Positions 44,768-50,090 of a stretch of DNA of 64,000 bases are shown here, in pieces. The notes under the pieces were generated by a model. That model did no database searches, had not been told where the DNA came from, and was given only the letters and a program-made list of their open reading frames with translations. The translations under genes and the position numbers were made by a program. The stretch comes from Candidatus Nitrosotalea sinensis (GTDB lineage Archaea; Thermoproteota; Nitrososphaeria; Nitrososphaerales; Nitrosopumilaceae): positions 608,523 through 672,522 of the forward strand of contig NZ_FRFC01000003.1 in the NCBI RefSeq assembly GCF_900143675.1, written 5' to 3'. Numbering within the stretch: position 1 is the stretch's first letter; each line of letters starts with the position of its first letter.

Positions 44768-45568
44768 TCATCCTTGATGCCTCGCTGATAGAAACTTGGT
44801 TATTATCTTGGCTAGCTCTTCTGGGTCCTCGACATACGGTGAGTGCCCGCATCCATCCATTGCAACAAACTCGCAGTTTGGAATTGTGGATACAAATTGC
44901 TGGGAATATTCAAACGGTATGAGCTTGTCATCTCTACCCCATATCACCAGTGTCGGTATTGTAATACTTGCAAGCTTGTCATGAATGTCTGGAGCATTTT
45001 TTAATCCCAATAATGTTGACAGGAAGACCATCTTTGCATTTGGCCTTGACATGTTGTTTACAAACCTCTCAACCGAAGTCTCTGAGATCTGCTTTCCTGG
45101 ACCTACCATCATCTGATATGCATTTTTGACAGAATCCTTGTTTGGATATAGTGCTGCCATTGTATATGCATCAAGTGTGGGAGTTGATTTTCGCATGATT
45201 CCTGCAGGTGATATCAAGATGATTTTTTCAATAATGTCATTTTGTGATGCAGCACATTCTATTACTATCTGTCCACCAAGTGAGGTGCCAATCAGAAATG
45301 TCTTTTTTATTCCAACTGCATTCATGAAATTAAATACAAATTTTGTAAAAAATTCTGGAGTGTAATCAACTGATGGCTTGTCGCTCTGCCCGTATCCTAT
45401 AAGATCTGGAGCTATGACGCGATATTTCTTGCTCAAAAATGGAAATAGGTTGTTCCATCTTTCCGCATACCCTCCAAGACCGTGAAGCAACACAATGGTG
45501 CGATCAGAATTTCCGTCCTCAAGATATCGTATGTTAAACCTATTGACCTCAACAAATTTTTCCTTCAT
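44768..45568 (-). CDS. Alpha/beta hydrolase near PHA genes
   Basis: A 266-residue hydrolase. The core has IVLLHGLGGYAERWNNLFPF (oxyanion), IGTSLGGQIVIECAASQ (Ser of the nucleophile elbow near 95), VIWGRDDKLIPFEYSQ (Asp near 213) and MDGCGHSPYVEDPEELA (His near 245). It resembles carboxylesterase/MhpC-like enzymes. Located between the CBS and phasin-like genes, it may cleave PHA oligomers or acyl-CoA esters, but this is inferred from place only. Confidence 0.82.
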   Translation of the reverse strand: MKEKFVEVNRFNIRYLEDGNSDRTIVLLHGLGGYAERWNNLFPFLSKKYRVIAPDLIGYGQSDKPSVDYTPEFFTKFVFNFMNAVGIKKTFLIGTSLGGQIVIECAASQNDIIEKIILISPAGIMRKSTPTLDAYTMAALYPNKDSVKNAYQMMVGPGKQISETSVERFVNNMSRPNAKMVFLSTLLGLKNAPDIHDKLASITIPTLVIWGRDDKLIPFEYSQQFVSTIPNCEFVAMDGCGHSPYVEDPEELAKIITKFLSARHQG

Positions 45569-45639: not shown

Positions 45640-46068
45640 TTATTTGCTTGAAACCTTTGGTATGGACGCTGAAGCGTATTCTAACATCTTGGCATACGTT
45701 GACAGCATGGCCTTTACCTGGTTGTCGTATGATTCTAGTGCCATCTTTGCATTATCTACAAATGTCTTTTGCATGTTGGAGAACATCTCTATCTGTGATA
45801 TTGCAGTCTGCGACATTATCTTGGAAAACTTTTCAAATGACTCGATTGCTTTTTGGTCCACTCCAAGCTTGTCTTCCAGTTCCTTTTCTGCGATATAACA
45901 TGTGCCAAAAAAGTCCCTGGCAATGCGCAAACCCTCTGACTGCAAGTCTGCAAAGCCCTCAATGTATAATGGCAGCAAGCCTTCTAGTTTCATGATGACA
46001 TCGTTTGTACTATCTCGCATGACATCACATACTGAGAGGGGGCTTTTTGATTCGGTCTTTTGGGCCAT
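45640..46068 (-). CDS. Phasin-like granule protein
   Basis: A 142-residue, all-helical, soluble protein with amphipathic helices (GLLPLYIEGFADLQSEGLRI, IEMFSNMQKTFVDNAKMALE, VKAMLSTYAKMLEYASASI). It lacks catalytic residues and is encoded divergently next to phaE and phaC, which is the standard place for phasins. It would coat the surface of PHA granules. The phasin assignment rests on context and helix pattern, not on a sequence match. Confidence 0.65.
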   Translation of the reverse strand: MAQKTESKSPLSVCDVMRDSTNDVIMKLEGLLPLYIEGFADLQSEGLRIARDFFGTCYIAEKELEDKLGVDQKAIESFEKFSKIMSQTAISQIEMFSNMQKTFVDNAKMALESYDNQVKAMLSTYAKMLEYASASIPKVSSK

Positions 46069-46166: not shown

Positions 46167-46742
46167 ATGTCTACACCTGATGAGAAAAAACTATTGACAG
46201 GATTCAAGCACAATTCACTATTTTGGACAGACCTGCTGTATTTGATGTCAAATAGGCAACAATCAATTGCAGCAACAGGACCGTTTCGTAAATTTGCAAT
46301 CAATGCCAAAAACATTAGCACTGAAACTATAGAGATGAATGAAGACTTGGCAGAGTTTAACAAAAGACTTGGCACATACTACAAGCAACTATCTGATACC
46401 TGGAATGATGCGCAAGGTGAGTACACAAGAAAGGTGCCTGAACTGCCAAATGATGTAGAACACATCGAGGCATCAAAGAGGATCTGGATTGACATATTTG
46501 AGAATTATTTCACAAGGTTGTTTGATTCTGTAGAATTTGCAGAAAATTTTGGCAAACTGGTGACAAGTGAGCTTGAGATTGCCAAGCACTGGAATAACAT
46601 TGCATCCACGCTGCTTGAGAGTGCAAACATGCCTACAAAAAAAGAGATGGATGAGGTGTACAAAGAGTTACACTCTTTGCGAAAAAGAGTTGCCAAACTT
46701 GAAAAAATAGCAAACAAGGAAGTACAAGAAAATGACAAATGA
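46167..46742 (+). CDS. phaE: Class III PHA synthase subunit PhaE
   Basis: A 191-residue helical protein without catalytic residues. It begins STPDEKKLLTGFKHNSLFWT and has a long central helix (FFENYFTRL-like IWIDIFENYFTRLFDSV), then SELEIAKHWNNIASTLLE and MDEVYKELHSLRKRVAKL, the C-terminal coiled coil characteristic of PhaE. It overlaps phaC by eleven bases, so the two are translated together. With PhaC it polymerises hydroxyacyl-CoA on granules; archaeal PhaE proteins are short and divergent. Confidence 0.8.
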   Translation: MSTPDEKKLLTGFKHNSLFWTDLLYLMSNRQQSIAATGPFRKFAINAKNISTETIEMNEDLAEFNKRLGTYYKQLSDTWNDAQGEYTRKVPELPNDVEHIEASKRIWIDIFENYFTRLFDSVEFAENFGKLVTSELEIAKHWNNIASTLLESANMPTKKEMDEVYKELHSLRKRVAKLEKIANKEVQENDK

Positions 46743-47796
46743 AATCAGGGTAGACCCTAAGGTAATTGCTGAATTTATCAAGCTAAATGCCAACATATTC
46801 GAGGCTCCAAACTTTGCCAAGTCTTTAGAAGAGGTGGACCTTGAAACAACTCCATACGAGGTAGTCTACTCTGAAGGAAAGGTCCGTCTGTTGCATTTTG
46901 TGCCACAGGTGCAAAGACAACTCAAGACACCGCTTGTCATTGCATATGCACTTGTAAACAGATTTCACATTTTAGATATTCATCCAAAAAAGAGTTGGGT
47001 GCGAAATTTGCTCAACCAGGGAATTGATGTATATCTAATAGATTGGGGAACTCCAACCCAGATAAACCGACATGAGGGCTTTGATGACTATGTCAACGGG
47101 TACATGGACAACTGCGTTGACTATGTTTTGAATGAATCACAATCAAAACGAGTGTCATTGCAGGGCTATTGCACAGGCGGTACGCTATCTACAGTATATG
47201 CTGCACTGCATACAAACAAGGTACAAACACTTACACTTACTGCACCTATAATCGATGGACGACGGGACAGCACGGTAGTGTCAAATCTTGCCAAGCACCT
47301 GGATGTTGACAAGCTAATTGACACACTTGGCAACATGCCGCCTGAGATGATGTACTATGTTTTTTCCATACTCAAACCATTTGAGCAAGGATTTGAAAAA
47401 TACCTGAATTTCTTCAAAAACATTCACAATAAAGACTATGTGGACAACTTTTTGCGTGTTGAAAAGTGGGTCTCTGACACACCTCCGATTCCTGGTGAGC
47501 TGTATCGCCAGTGGATTAAAGACGTCTACCAGGAGAATCTCTTGATAAACAACAACATGTATGTGGCAGGAAGGCGGGTCTCACTCAAAAATATAACAAT
47601 GCCGCTTCTCACGCAGGTTGCAGTAGGGGACCATCTGGTATCCCCTGAATGCAGCATGCCTATACACTATGCAGTATCTTCTGAAGACAAGACCTTGAAA
47701 ATATACCCTACAGGACACGTTGGAATGATTGCAAGCTCTTTCTCGCAGAAAAAAGTTCTTCCCGAGTTTGCCCAGTGGCTTGCTCAAAGATCATAA
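46732..47796 (+). CDS. phaC: Class III PHA synthase catalytic subunit PhaC
   Basis: A 354-residue synthase. The lipase-like box GYCTGG carries the catalytic Cys near 147; Asp near 300 is in VAVGDHLVSPE and His near 329 in PTGHVGMIASSF. Upstream are LVIAYALVNRFHILDIHP and LLNQGIDVYLIDWGTPT, typical of PhaC. Length fits the short class III/archaeal enzyme. It joins (R)-3-hydroxyacyl-CoA units into polyester storage granules. It overlaps phaE and is followed by convergent phasin genes with poly-T signals in between. Confidence 0.93.
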   Translation: MTNEIRVDPKVIAEFIKLNANIFEAPNFAKSLEEVDLETTPYEVVYSEGKVRLLHFVPQVQRQLKTPLVIAYALVNRFHILDIHPKKSWVRNLLNQGIDVYLIDWGTPTQINRHEGFDDYVNGYMDNCVDYVLNESQSKRVSLQGYCTGGTLSTVYAALHTNKVQTLTLTAPIIDGRRDSTVVSNLAKHLDVDKLIDTLGNMPPEMMYYVFSILKPFEQGFEKYLNFFKNIHNKDYVDNFLRVEKWVSDTPPIPGELYRQWIKDVYQENLLINNNMYVAGRRVSLKNITMPLLTQVAVGDHLVSPECSMPIHYAVSSEDKTLKIYPTGHVGMIASSFSQKKVLPEFAQWLAQRS

Positions 47797-47816: not shown

Positions 47817-48230
47817 TTAGTTCTTGCTTGGAGTCCATGCTGAGAACCAAGATTGCAGTATGTTTGCATCCATTGTTGTAAATGCCTTGAGGTTGTCATT
47901 GAAGGTCTTTACATTTTGTCTTGCTGCCTCCATTGCTGCTAGTACCGCCTTGTTCTGAACTGAACTTGTCTTTAGAATTTCTTCAGTTGCATCATTTATT
48001 GCCTTGATGTATGTTGGCGGGAGGTTTGCATTAAATCCATTCTTTGTTGCTGATTCCTGCTGGAATTCAATTGCAGATTCTACTGCATTTTTGTATGCTG
48101 TTGCAAATTCCTGCTGGAGGTTTGATGCTGCCTGGATGTATTGAGTGATGTTTTTCTCTGCTTCCTCAAAGTATCTGTTTATGTTTTGCTTGTACACTGC
48201 ATATGCTTCTTTTGTTTCTGTCTTGCTCAT
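47817..48230 (-). CDS. Phasin-like granule protein
   Basis: A 137-residue helical protein (AVYKQNINRYFEEAEKNITQ, YKNAVESAIEFQQESATKNG, AAMEAARQNVKTFNDNLKAF) ending with WFSAWTPSKN. Its amphipathic helices and Ala/Gln/Asn-rich make-up are typical of phasins. A GGAGGTG ribosome binding site five bases before the ATG overlaps the stop codon of the AbrB fusion gene, giving tight coupling. It probably covers PHA granules made by PhaE and PhaC. Confidence 0.75.
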   Translation of the reverse strand: MSKTETKEAYAVYKQNINRYFEEAEKNITQYIQAASNLQQEFATAYKNAVESAIEFQQESATKNGFNANLPPTYIKAINDATEEILKTSSVQNKAVLAAMEAARQNVKTFNDNLKAFTTMDANILQSWFSAWTPSKN

Positions 48231-48235
48231 CTTTT

Positions 48236-48242
48236 CACCTCC
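48236..48242 (-). promoter_or_regulatory. Ribosome binding site GGAGGTG
   Basis: GGAGGTG on the minus strand five bases before the phasin ATG; its first base overlaps the stop codon of the upstream gene. Confidence 0.65.
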
Positions 48243-48646
48243 TATTTCGAATTTCTTTTATTGATTGGAACTATGATGACTTGAACCAAGTCATTTTCCT
48301 TGATTCCAATTGCTTCTCGTTCTGCTTCAGGTATTGAGATTCTCCCATTGCTTCCAACTGATGTCTTAAATGCACCCCATGATGAAAATTGAGGTAAATT
48401 CTGCATTAGGCCAAACCAATTGTACATTGCTTTTGATCCTGTCTCTGCAAAGTTTTGCACCATGTCAGTCTGTGCACGGGTCGACTTGTCTGCCATCTCC
48501 TTTAGTGTATCCAAAGGATTTGATTGATTTGTACGGTTCATCATCTCTCCAAATGTCTTCATAAAATCCATCTGTGCCCTACCGCTTTTTTGGATCCATT
48601 CGCGAAAGATTGCTGATGGGTCCGGTTGGTCATAGTTACCAGTCAT
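48242..48646 (-). CDS. Phasin-like/AbrB fusion, candidate PHA regulator
   Basis: A 134-residue protein with two parts. Residues about 10-85 are amphipathic and phasin-like (IFREWIQKSGRAQMDFMKTF, STRAQTDMVQNFAETGSKAM). Residues about 92-130 match a SpoVT/AbrB swapped-hairpin DNA-binding domain (SVGSNGRISIPEAEREAIGI, ENDLVQVIIVPI). Haloferax PhaR is an AbrB-type regulator that binds granules and DNA; this fusion could do both jobs. It is the first gene of the operon with the phasin at 47817, under a shared TATA box at 48668-48678. Confidence 0.78.
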   Translation of the reverse strand: MTGNYDQPDPSAIFREWIQKSGRAQMDFMKTFGEMMNRTNQSNPLDTLKEMADKSTRAQTDMVQNFAETGSKAMYNWFGLMQNLPQFSSWGAFKTSVGSNGRISIPEAEREAIGIKENDLVQVIIVPINKRNSK

Positions 48647-48667
48647 TGGTAATGATAACCAGCTAAA

Positions 48668-48678
48668 GGTATATAACC
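48668..48678. promoter_or_regulatory. Near-palindromic TATA box shared by divergent genes
   Basis: GGTATATAACC lies midway between the divergent starts at 48646 (minus) and 48699/48702 (plus). The centre at 48673 is 27 bases from the minus start and 26-29 from the plus start, the right distance for leaderless transcription both ways. Confidence 0.6.
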
Positions 48679-48701
48679 CTATTGCTGTACTGGTACAATT
48701 G

Positions 48702-50090
48702 ATGTCTATTCAGACAATCAATCCTGCCACTGAATCGCAAATTGCTCAATATCAAATCATCACTGATGCAGAACTTAAAACCAAGGTGGCAAAATCACGT
48801 GAGACTTTTTCCAAGTGGAAGACAGACCCAAAAAAACGTGCCATGTTTTTGCACTTGCTGTCTGAACAATTGCGAAAAAACAAGGACTCTCTTGCCAAGA
48901 TTGCAACCCAAGAGATGGGAAAGACAATCAAGGAATCTGCCGCAGAGGTTGAAAAGTGTGCATGGGTGATGGAGTTTTACGGAGACAATGGGGAGACATT
49001 TCTAAATTCTGAAGTAATAAACACTGATGCAAGAAAAAGCTATATTGCATTTGAACCGCTTGGATTAATTGCAAGTATAATGCCGTGGAACTTTCCATAT
49101 TGGCAGGCATTGAGATTTGCAGCGCCATCTCTTATGGCTGGCAACACTATACTTCTCAAGCCCGCAAGTGTCACAATGAACTGTGGACTACAAATTGAGC
49201 AAATGTTTCTAAAAGCAGGATTTCCTGAAGGTGTATTTCAGACACTTGTCAGCGATTCCAAGATGGCAGAAAAATTAATTGATTCTGATATTAATGCAGT
49301 TACGTTTACTGGAAGCAATATTGCAGGTTCCAAGGTTGCTCAAAGGGCAACATCCCAGATAAAAAAATGTGTACTGGAACTTGGTGGCAGCGATCCGTTC
49401 ATTGTGTGCTCTGATGCTGATGTAGACAAGGCCTCAACAGGTGCAGTAAAGGGACGATTCATCAATTGCGGACAGAGCTGCATTGCATCAAAGAGATTTT
49501 TTGTAACAAAAAACATAGCAAAAGAGTTCATAGAGCAGTTTGTACAAAAAACTGAGAAACTTGTTGTAGGTGACCCAATGTCTGACAGTACAGATATTGG
49601 CCCTCTTGTAAATGCAGATGGCCTTGCTAGGATTGAGGCAATGGTAAAAGATGCCACAAGCAAGGGAGCTCAGGTGTTAACAGGCGGAAAAAGACTAGGC
49701 AGCAAGGGTTACTTTTACACCCCTACAGTTCTTGGAGGGATATCACCTGATATGGCAGTGGCAAATGAAGAGGTCTTTGGACCTGTAGCACCTGTCACTA
49801 TCGTAGAAGACGAGCAAGAGGCAATAAAACTTGCAAACCAGTCACAGTATGGCCTTGGGGCAAGCATTTGGACAAAAAACCTGGACAAGGCAGACAAGAT
49901 GTCAGCACTTGTAGAATCAGGAATTGTATCTGTGAATAATGTTGTAATATCAGACCCTAGGATTCCGTTTGGCGGTGTAAAGCACAGCGGATTTGGAAGG
50001 GAATTGTCAAGATACGGCATGATGGAATTTGTAAACATCAAGTCTGTACGATACTATGATCAGCTAGTACAGCATCATCGCGTAGAATAA
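48702..50090 (+). CDS. Succinate-semialdehyde-type aldehyde dehydrogenase
   Basis: A 462-residue NAD(P)-dependent aldehyde dehydrogenase. Features are PWNFPYWQALRFAAPSLMAG, FTGSNIAGSKVAQRA, the general base in VLELGGSDPFIV (Glu near 226), the catalytic Cys in NCGQSCIASKRFF (near 260) and EEVFGPVAPV near 350. The pattern is GabD/Sad-like. In thaumarchaea a related enzyme acts as succinyl-CoA reductase in the hydroxypropionate/hydroxybutyrate cycle, a possible role here, but substrate cannot be read from sequence. It shares a TATA box with the phasin/AbrB operon. Confidence 0.85.
   Translation: MSIQTINPATESQIAQYQIITDAELKTKVAKSRETFSKWKTDPKKRAMFLHLLSEQLRKNKDSLAKIATQEMGKTIKESAAEVEKCAWVMEFYGDNGETFLNSEVINTDARKSYIAFEPLGLIASIMPWNFPYWQALRFAAPSLMAGNTILLKPASVTMNCGLQIEQMFLKAGFPEGVFQTLVSDSKMAEKLIDSDINAVTFTGSNIAGSKVAQRATSQIKKCVLELGGSDPFIVCSDADVDKASTGAVKGRFINCGQSCIASKRFFVTKNIAKEFIEQFVQKTEKLVVGDPMSDSTDIGPLVNADGLARIEAMVKDATSKGAQVLTGGKRLGSKGYFYTPTVLGGISPDMAVANEEVFGPVAPVTIVEDEQEAIKLANQSQYGLGASIWTKNLDKADKMSALVESGIVSVNNVVISDPRIPFGGVKHSGFGRELSRYGMMEFVNIKSVRYYDQLVQHHRVE

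What the first reader, a model, noticed from the sequence alone, without database searches (positions are those of the whole stretch)
48242..48646. Phasin-like helices fused to an AbrB DNA-binding domain
The N-terminal half looks like a granule-coating helix bundle and the C-terminal half is an AbrB hairpin (SVGSNGRISIPEAEREAIGI). A protein that can sit on granules or on DNA would sense free granule surface directly. Haloferax PhaR is an AbrB-type PHA regulator, which makes this credible.
Basis: partly seen in the sequence, partly recalled or inferred. Interest (0 to 1): 0.7.

Follow-up and report, generated by a model that had tools for sequence, protein, structure and literature searches.

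The report
Archaeal PhaR repressor of storage-granule genes
This gene in an ammonia-oxidizing archaeon makes a repressor of the PhaR type known from salt-loving archaea, which probably switches off itself and its granule-coat partner until plastic (PHA) storage granules appear; the kind is known, but its DNA target, which here runs into the gene's own first codons, seems to be undescribed.

Summary
The ORF is real (134 aa, minus strand) and the AbrB hairpin is there (residues 95-124), in a Candidatus Nitrosotalea-type genome. It is not a new fusion. Haloarchaeal PhaR, the AbrB-type repressor of the phaRP operon in Haloferax, is reported to carry its AbrB domain at the C-terminus and to sit on PHA granules. 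The window protein is its counterpart: homologous AbrB domain, phaR-phaP order, and phaE-phaC next door. PhaR and class III PhaC co-occur in 138 of 200 Nitrososphaeria genomes, with only 4 carrying just one of them. The N-terminal half is predicted as amphipathic helices, but shows no homology to the neighbouring phasins, to PhaE or to any Pfam family, so 'phasin-like' is unproven. The new part is the operator. GGT/ACC half-sites alternate exactly every 10 bp from the TATA box through codon 7 of phaR. The five-site array occurs once in the 1.6-Mb genome, is conserved across Nitrosopumilaceae, and constrains wobble bases inside the ORF (codon 3 is GGT in 76 of 79). Best explanation: PhaR represses phaRP (and, near the window, a divergent aldehyde dehydrogenase) and is titrated away by granules. 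Binding and granule localisation in these archaea remain untested.

The parts
48242..48646 (-). phaR: haloarchaeal-type PhaR repressor, 134 aa; residues 1-92 predicted amphipathic helices, 93-128 swapped-hairpin AbrB domain
48628..48670 (-). candidate PhaR operator ACC-N7-GGT-N7-ACC-N7-GGT-N7-ACC (half-sites every 10 bp, alternating), from the TATA box to codon 7 of phaR
   Evidence: only exact occurrence in 1.6 Mb; 79 loci, period-10 signal; wobble-base constraint
48670..48676 (-). phaR TATA box (TTATATA), 24-30 bp upstream of ATG; suggests leaderless transcription
   Evidence: conserved at -30 to -24 in 79 loci
47817..48230 (-). phaP-type phasin candidate, 137 aa, two-helix hairpin; gene directly downstream of phaR
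   Evidence: conserved next to phaR; AlphaFold2 two long helices, pLDDT 83.5
46167..46742 (+). phaE, class III PHA synthase subunit
   Evidence: PHA_synth_III_E 5e-12, over the Pfam cut-off
46732..47796 (+). phaC, class III PHA synthase
   Evidence: TIGR01836 416 bits, over cut-off 365
45640..46068 (-). second phasin-like protein, paralog of the 47817-48230 product
   Evidence: hhalign probability 95%, E 5e-8
48699..50090 (+). aldehyde dehydrogenase (succinate-semialdehyde-dehydrogenase-like) divergent from phaR, sharing its promoter region; possible second PhaR target near the window
44768..45568 (-). alpha/beta hydrolase whose homolog lies directly upstream of phaR in most other Nitrosopumilaceae; possible PHA-mobilising enzyme

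Best explanation
The gene is the Nitrososphaeria counterpart of haloarchaeal PhaR. A PhaR dimer (AbrB swapped hairpin) binds an array of GGT/ACC half-sites that lie one per helical turn on one face of DNA, from the TATA box across the start codon into codon 7 of phaR, and so blocks assembly of the basal transcription machinery at the phaR-phaP promoter. When PHA granules form, the amphipathic N-terminal helices hold PhaR on the granule surface, the operator is freed, and phasin PhaP is made to coat the new surface; PhaR then represses itself again. Shown here: domain, homology, gene order, co-occurrence with PhaC, the conserved unique operator and selection on its bases within the ORF. Reported for the Haloferax relative: autorepression of phaRP, need for the AbrB domain, granule location, higher phaRP expression when PHA is present. 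Inferred for this organism: binding by PhaR, repression, granule binding, titration.
For: AbrB domain. Homology to haloarchaeal proteins encoded in maoC-AbrB-phaP-phaE-phaC clusters: H. larsenii and Haladaptatus, 34-35% overall, AbrB core KTRVQSGGRISIPDAERxxLxIxEGDxVQ. Order (alpha/beta hydrolase)-phaR-phaP convergent with phaC-phaE in nearly all of 80 loci. PhaR and PhaC over cut-off: both in 138, PhaR only 1, PhaC only 3, neither 58 of 200 genomes, Fisher p 2e-45 (counts read; test). Operator: exact five-site array once in the genome, at phaR; mean chain 3.73 at period 10 against 1.2-1.4 at other periods; at least 3 of 5 sites in 64 of 79 loci against 4 of 1580 shuffles; no other place with 4 sites in 721 kb. 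Codon 3 Gly is GGT in 76 of 79 (25% background); codon 6 has 10 amino-acid changes on the tree but 3 third-base changes. The bacterial AbrB pseudo-consensus TGGNA-N5-TGGNA also repeats every 10 bp (PMC11497800). Haloferax facts: PMC9049629, PMC7137286.
Against: No binding, expression or localisation data for any Nitrososphaeria PhaR. The N-terminal half shows no homology to phasins and its model is poor. Outside Nitrosopumilaceae the N-terminal half is much shorter and the strict operator is not obvious. Three genomes have PhaC but no detected PhaR, one the reverse.
Confidence: 0.8

Rival explanations
1. PhaR autorepresses phaRP through the operator, but the N-terminal half is only an oligomerisation module that lets dimers occupy neighbouring half-sites; it does not touch granules, and the inducing signal is something else.
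For: The array of five phased half-sites calls for side-by-side dimers; no homology of the N-terminal half to granule proteins.
Against: The Haloferax relative is reported on granules and phaRP expression rises when PHA is present (PMC7137286); the helices are amphipathic; near-perfect co-occurrence with PhaC.
Confidence: 0.15
2. The array is bound by another factor (a different regulator, or it is an extended core-promoter/start-region element), and PhaR acts elsewhere or mainly as a granule protein.
For: No direct evidence links PhaR to the array; the conserved TATA and start-codon region could partly reflect transcription or translation start signals.
Against: The array continues into the ORF with constrained wobble bases, is found only at phaR in 721 kb of flanks and once in the genome, as expected for autoregulation; half-site TGGTA fits AbrB TGGNA.
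Confidence: 0.08
3. The AbrB domain belongs to a MazE-type antitoxin of a toxin-antitoxin pair.
For: Best Pfam name is MazE_antitoxin.
Against: No toxin-like gene adjacent; the partner is a conserved two-helix phasin candidate and the neighbours are PHA synthase genes.
Confidence: 0.02

Closest known systems
Haloarchaeal PhaR (Haloferax mediterranei, Cai et al. 2015; described in PMC9049629 and PMC7137286)
   Same: C-terminal AbrB-like domain, short helical N-terminus, phaR-phaP tandem, phaE-phaC adjacent, repeats in its promoter
   Different: Nitrosopumilaceae proteins have a longer N-terminal half; phaEC is convergent rather than downstream; operator overlaps the start codon; no MaoC/PhaJ gene beside phaR; no experiments
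Bacterial PhaR (Cupriavidus/Paracoccus type)
   Same: Works alike: a repressor of phasin genes that can bind granules or DNA (general knowledge of the field and PMC9049629)
   Different: Different, non-AbrB DNA-binding domain (general knowledge); no bacterial PhaR domain among the Pfam matches here
Pseudomonas PhaF
   Same: Granule-binding helical part plus a DNA-binding part in one protein (general knowledge)
   Different: Histone-like DNA-binding tail, role in granule segregation; not AbrB (general knowledge)
Bacillus AbrB and archaeal swapped-hairpin proteins (2l66; 2glw)
   Same: DNA-binding fold; 2glw matches the profile at 2.6e-9; TGGNA half-sites spaced 10 bp for bacterial AbrB
   Different: No N-terminal amphipathic half, no PHA link

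Membership tests
Haloarchaeal-type PhaR | AbrB-like domain at the C-terminus | tested here: met
Haloarchaeal-type PhaR | Sequence homology to PhaR proteins of haloarchaeal pha clusters | tested here: met
   tblastn 2e-9 to 3e-7; 34-36% overall, AbrB core mostly identical. The H. mediterranei protein itself was not in the collection; H. larsenii and Haladaptatus stood in
Haloarchaeal-type PhaR | phaR directly upstream of phaP, next to phaE-phaC | tested here: met
   phaEC is convergent, not in line
Haloarchaeal-type PhaR | Repeated cis-element in its own promoter | tested here: met
   identity of the repeat with the Haloferax element was not testable (paper not held)
Haloarchaeal-type PhaR | Binds and represses the phaRP promoter | not testable with these tools
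   needs EMSA or reporter
Haloarchaeal-type PhaR | Located on PHA granules | not testable with these tools
   needs localisation or granule proteome
Phasin (N-terminal half) | Homology to a phasin family or to the adjacent phasins | tested here: not met
   hhalign probability under 3% with PhaP, second phasin and PhaE; no Pfam phasin in 43 members
Phasin (N-terminal half) | Amphipathic helices | tested here: inconclusive
   hydrophobic moments high but the structure model has low confidence
MazE antitoxin | Adjacent toxin gene | tested here: not met
   neighbours are phasin candidate, PHA synthase, aldehyde dehydrogenase

The most novel reading that the evidence does not exclude
The N-terminal half of Nitrosopumilaceae PhaR is a granule-surface-binding domain unrelated to known phasins, and its operator is an array of phased half-sites that straddles the start codon, so that the DNA target has helped to fix the first seven residues (M-[STN]-G-N-x-x-Q) of the repressor: one stretch of DNA is at once promoter, operator and coding sequence in most ammonia-oxidizing archaea.
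Probability: 0.45. Interest if true: 0.55.

Novelty: new member of a known kind. Interest (0 to 1): 0.42.

Why it matters
PHA storage in ammonia-oxidizing archaea is known from synthase genes, Raman and microscopy (PMC11082331), but the searches made here of the held papers found no description of its regulator there. The locus offers a named repressor, its likely 43-bp target, and a testable switch in organisms central to the nitrogen cycle, and it suggests that one archaeal PhaR family serves both haloarchaea and Nitrososphaeria.

Tried and rejected
Homology of the N-terminal half to PhaP, the second phasin or PhaE by profile comparison: none. An apparent internal duplication in the N-terminal half (KSGRAQMDFMKTF / KSTRAQTDMVQNF) was not supported by profile self-comparison. 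AlphaFold2 of PhaR as a monomer: too poor to search with, as expected for a swapped-hairpin dimer. Foldseek of the PhaP model against the PDB: no match. A short palindrome search gave one exact hit but no excess of near hits over control; the phased five-site pattern was far more specific. The same array was not found before phaE or the second phasin. A period-10 pattern in haloarchaeal phaR promoters is suggestive by eye for H. larsenii but not significant with three sequences. Original Cai 2012/2015 papers are not held. MazE toxin-antitoxin reading rejected on neighbourhood.

Full report
OBSERVATION. The ORF 48242-48646 (-) encodes 134 aa. Residues 95-124 match the AbrB looped-hinge-helix/MazE models, just under the curated cut-offs, and all 43 aligned orthologs do so. 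The window belongs to a Candidatus Nitrosotalea-type genome of 1.6 Mb (relatives named; placement). The gene occurs once there and in 35 of 37 genomes of the genus.

WHAT IT IS. Searching plasmids, the only good matches are AbrB proteins of haloarchaea. In Haloferax larsenii and Haladaptatus these lie in MaoC-AbrB-hypothetical-PhaE-PhaC clusters, the order reported for haloarchaeal maoC-phaR-phaP-phaE-phaC (PMC7137286). The AbrB core is nearly the same: window KTSVGSNGRISIPEAEREAIGIKENDLVQVIIVPI, H. larsenii KTRVQSGGRISIPDAERDALDIEEGDLVQAFVVPI. The window has the same partners: a phaP-type gene 47817-48230 behind phaR, and class III phaE-phaC 46167-47796 facing it. Across 80 fetched loci the order hydrolase-phaR-phaP convergent with phaC-phaE is kept almost everywhere, and phaR and phaP overlap by 4 bp in many.

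CO-OCCURRENCE. In the same 200 genomes of the class, strong PhaR matches (E 5e-18 or better) are in 139 and class III PhaC over cut-off in 141; both in 138 (my count from the lists). PhaR only: G181. PhaC only: G122, G169, G173. Fisher p 2e-45. These genomes are related, so the p-value overstates independence, but losses coincide.

THE OPERATOR. Upstream of phaR lies a conserved TATA box at -30 to -24, so transcription is probably leaderless (inference). From its edge onward, half-sites ACC(-24), GGT(-14), ACC(-4), GGT(+7), ACC(+17) stand exactly 10 bp apart, alternating in orientation. In the window this is ACCTTTAGCTGGTTATCATTACCAATGACTGGTAACTATGACC, 48670-48628 on the minus strand, with the ATG in the middle. 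The pattern with no mismatch occurs once in the genome. Over 79 loci the mean number of in-phase sites is 3.73 at period 10 and 1.2-1.4 at all other periods from 6 to 15; 64 of 79 have at least three sites against 4 of 1580 dinucleotide shuffles; nowhere else in 721 kb of these loci are four sites found. In many Nitrosopumilus-like promoters the -14 slot holds CC instead of GG.

SELECTION ON DNA INSIDE THE GENE. Codon 3 (Gly) is GGT in 76 of 79, with GGT 25% of Gly codons in neighbouring genes. Codon 6 changes amino acid 10 times on a PhaC tree (N, D, S, I, Y, G) but its third base only 3 times, staying C, while C is used in 31-41% of such codons elsewhere; codon 10, an almost invariant Pro, has 14 third-base changes. 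So the first seven codons are held by the DNA, not only by the protein.

N-TERMINAL HALF. It is predicted helical with amphipathic segments, but the model is weak and no homology to PhaP, the second phasin, PhaE or any Pfam family was found. In other families of the order and in haloarchaea it is much shorter. The downstream PhaP is a clear two-helix hairpin (pLDDT 83.5).

MECHANISM. Haloferax PhaR represses phaRP through its common promoter, needs its AbrB domain (PMC9049629), is found on granules, and phaRP is expressed more when PHA is present (PMC7137286). AbrB of bacteria favours TGGNA-N5-TGGNA, also a 10-bp repeat (PMC11497800). The most likely mechanism is the same titration switch here: PhaR on the array blocks the basal transcription machinery at phaRP; granule surface draws PhaR off. 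Binding, repression and granule location are inferred for this organism. Because the array is absent before phaE and the second phasin, the regulon is probably phaRP alone, plus, in the close relatives of the window, the divergent aldehyde dehydrogenase that shares the TATA region.

VERDICT. Known kind, apparently not described in ammonia-oxidizing archaea in the papers searched here; the novelty is the phased operator through the start codon and the longer N-terminal half.

Noticed in passing
45640-46068 (-): A second phasin-like protein, paralogous to the one behind phaR (hhalign probability 95%), present mainly in the Nitrosotalea-type loci.
   Followed up: partly
48647-48701: phaR and the aldehyde dehydrogenase diverge from a shared near-palindromic TATA element (GGTATATAACC); this arrangement is limited to the closest relatives (about 19 loci), elsewhere an alpha/beta hydrolase lies upstream of phaR.
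   Followed up: partly
44768-45568 (-): Alpha/beta hydrolase conserved next to the PHA genes across Nitrososphaeria; may be a PHA depolymerase or oligomer hydrolase.
   Followed up: no
48231-48241: The window phaR lacks the C-terminal EVKK tail and the 4-bp overlap with phaP seen in most relatives.
   Followed up: no
G022, G115, G155 and others: A few genomes have a second, weak AbrB match whose role was not examined.
   Followed up: no
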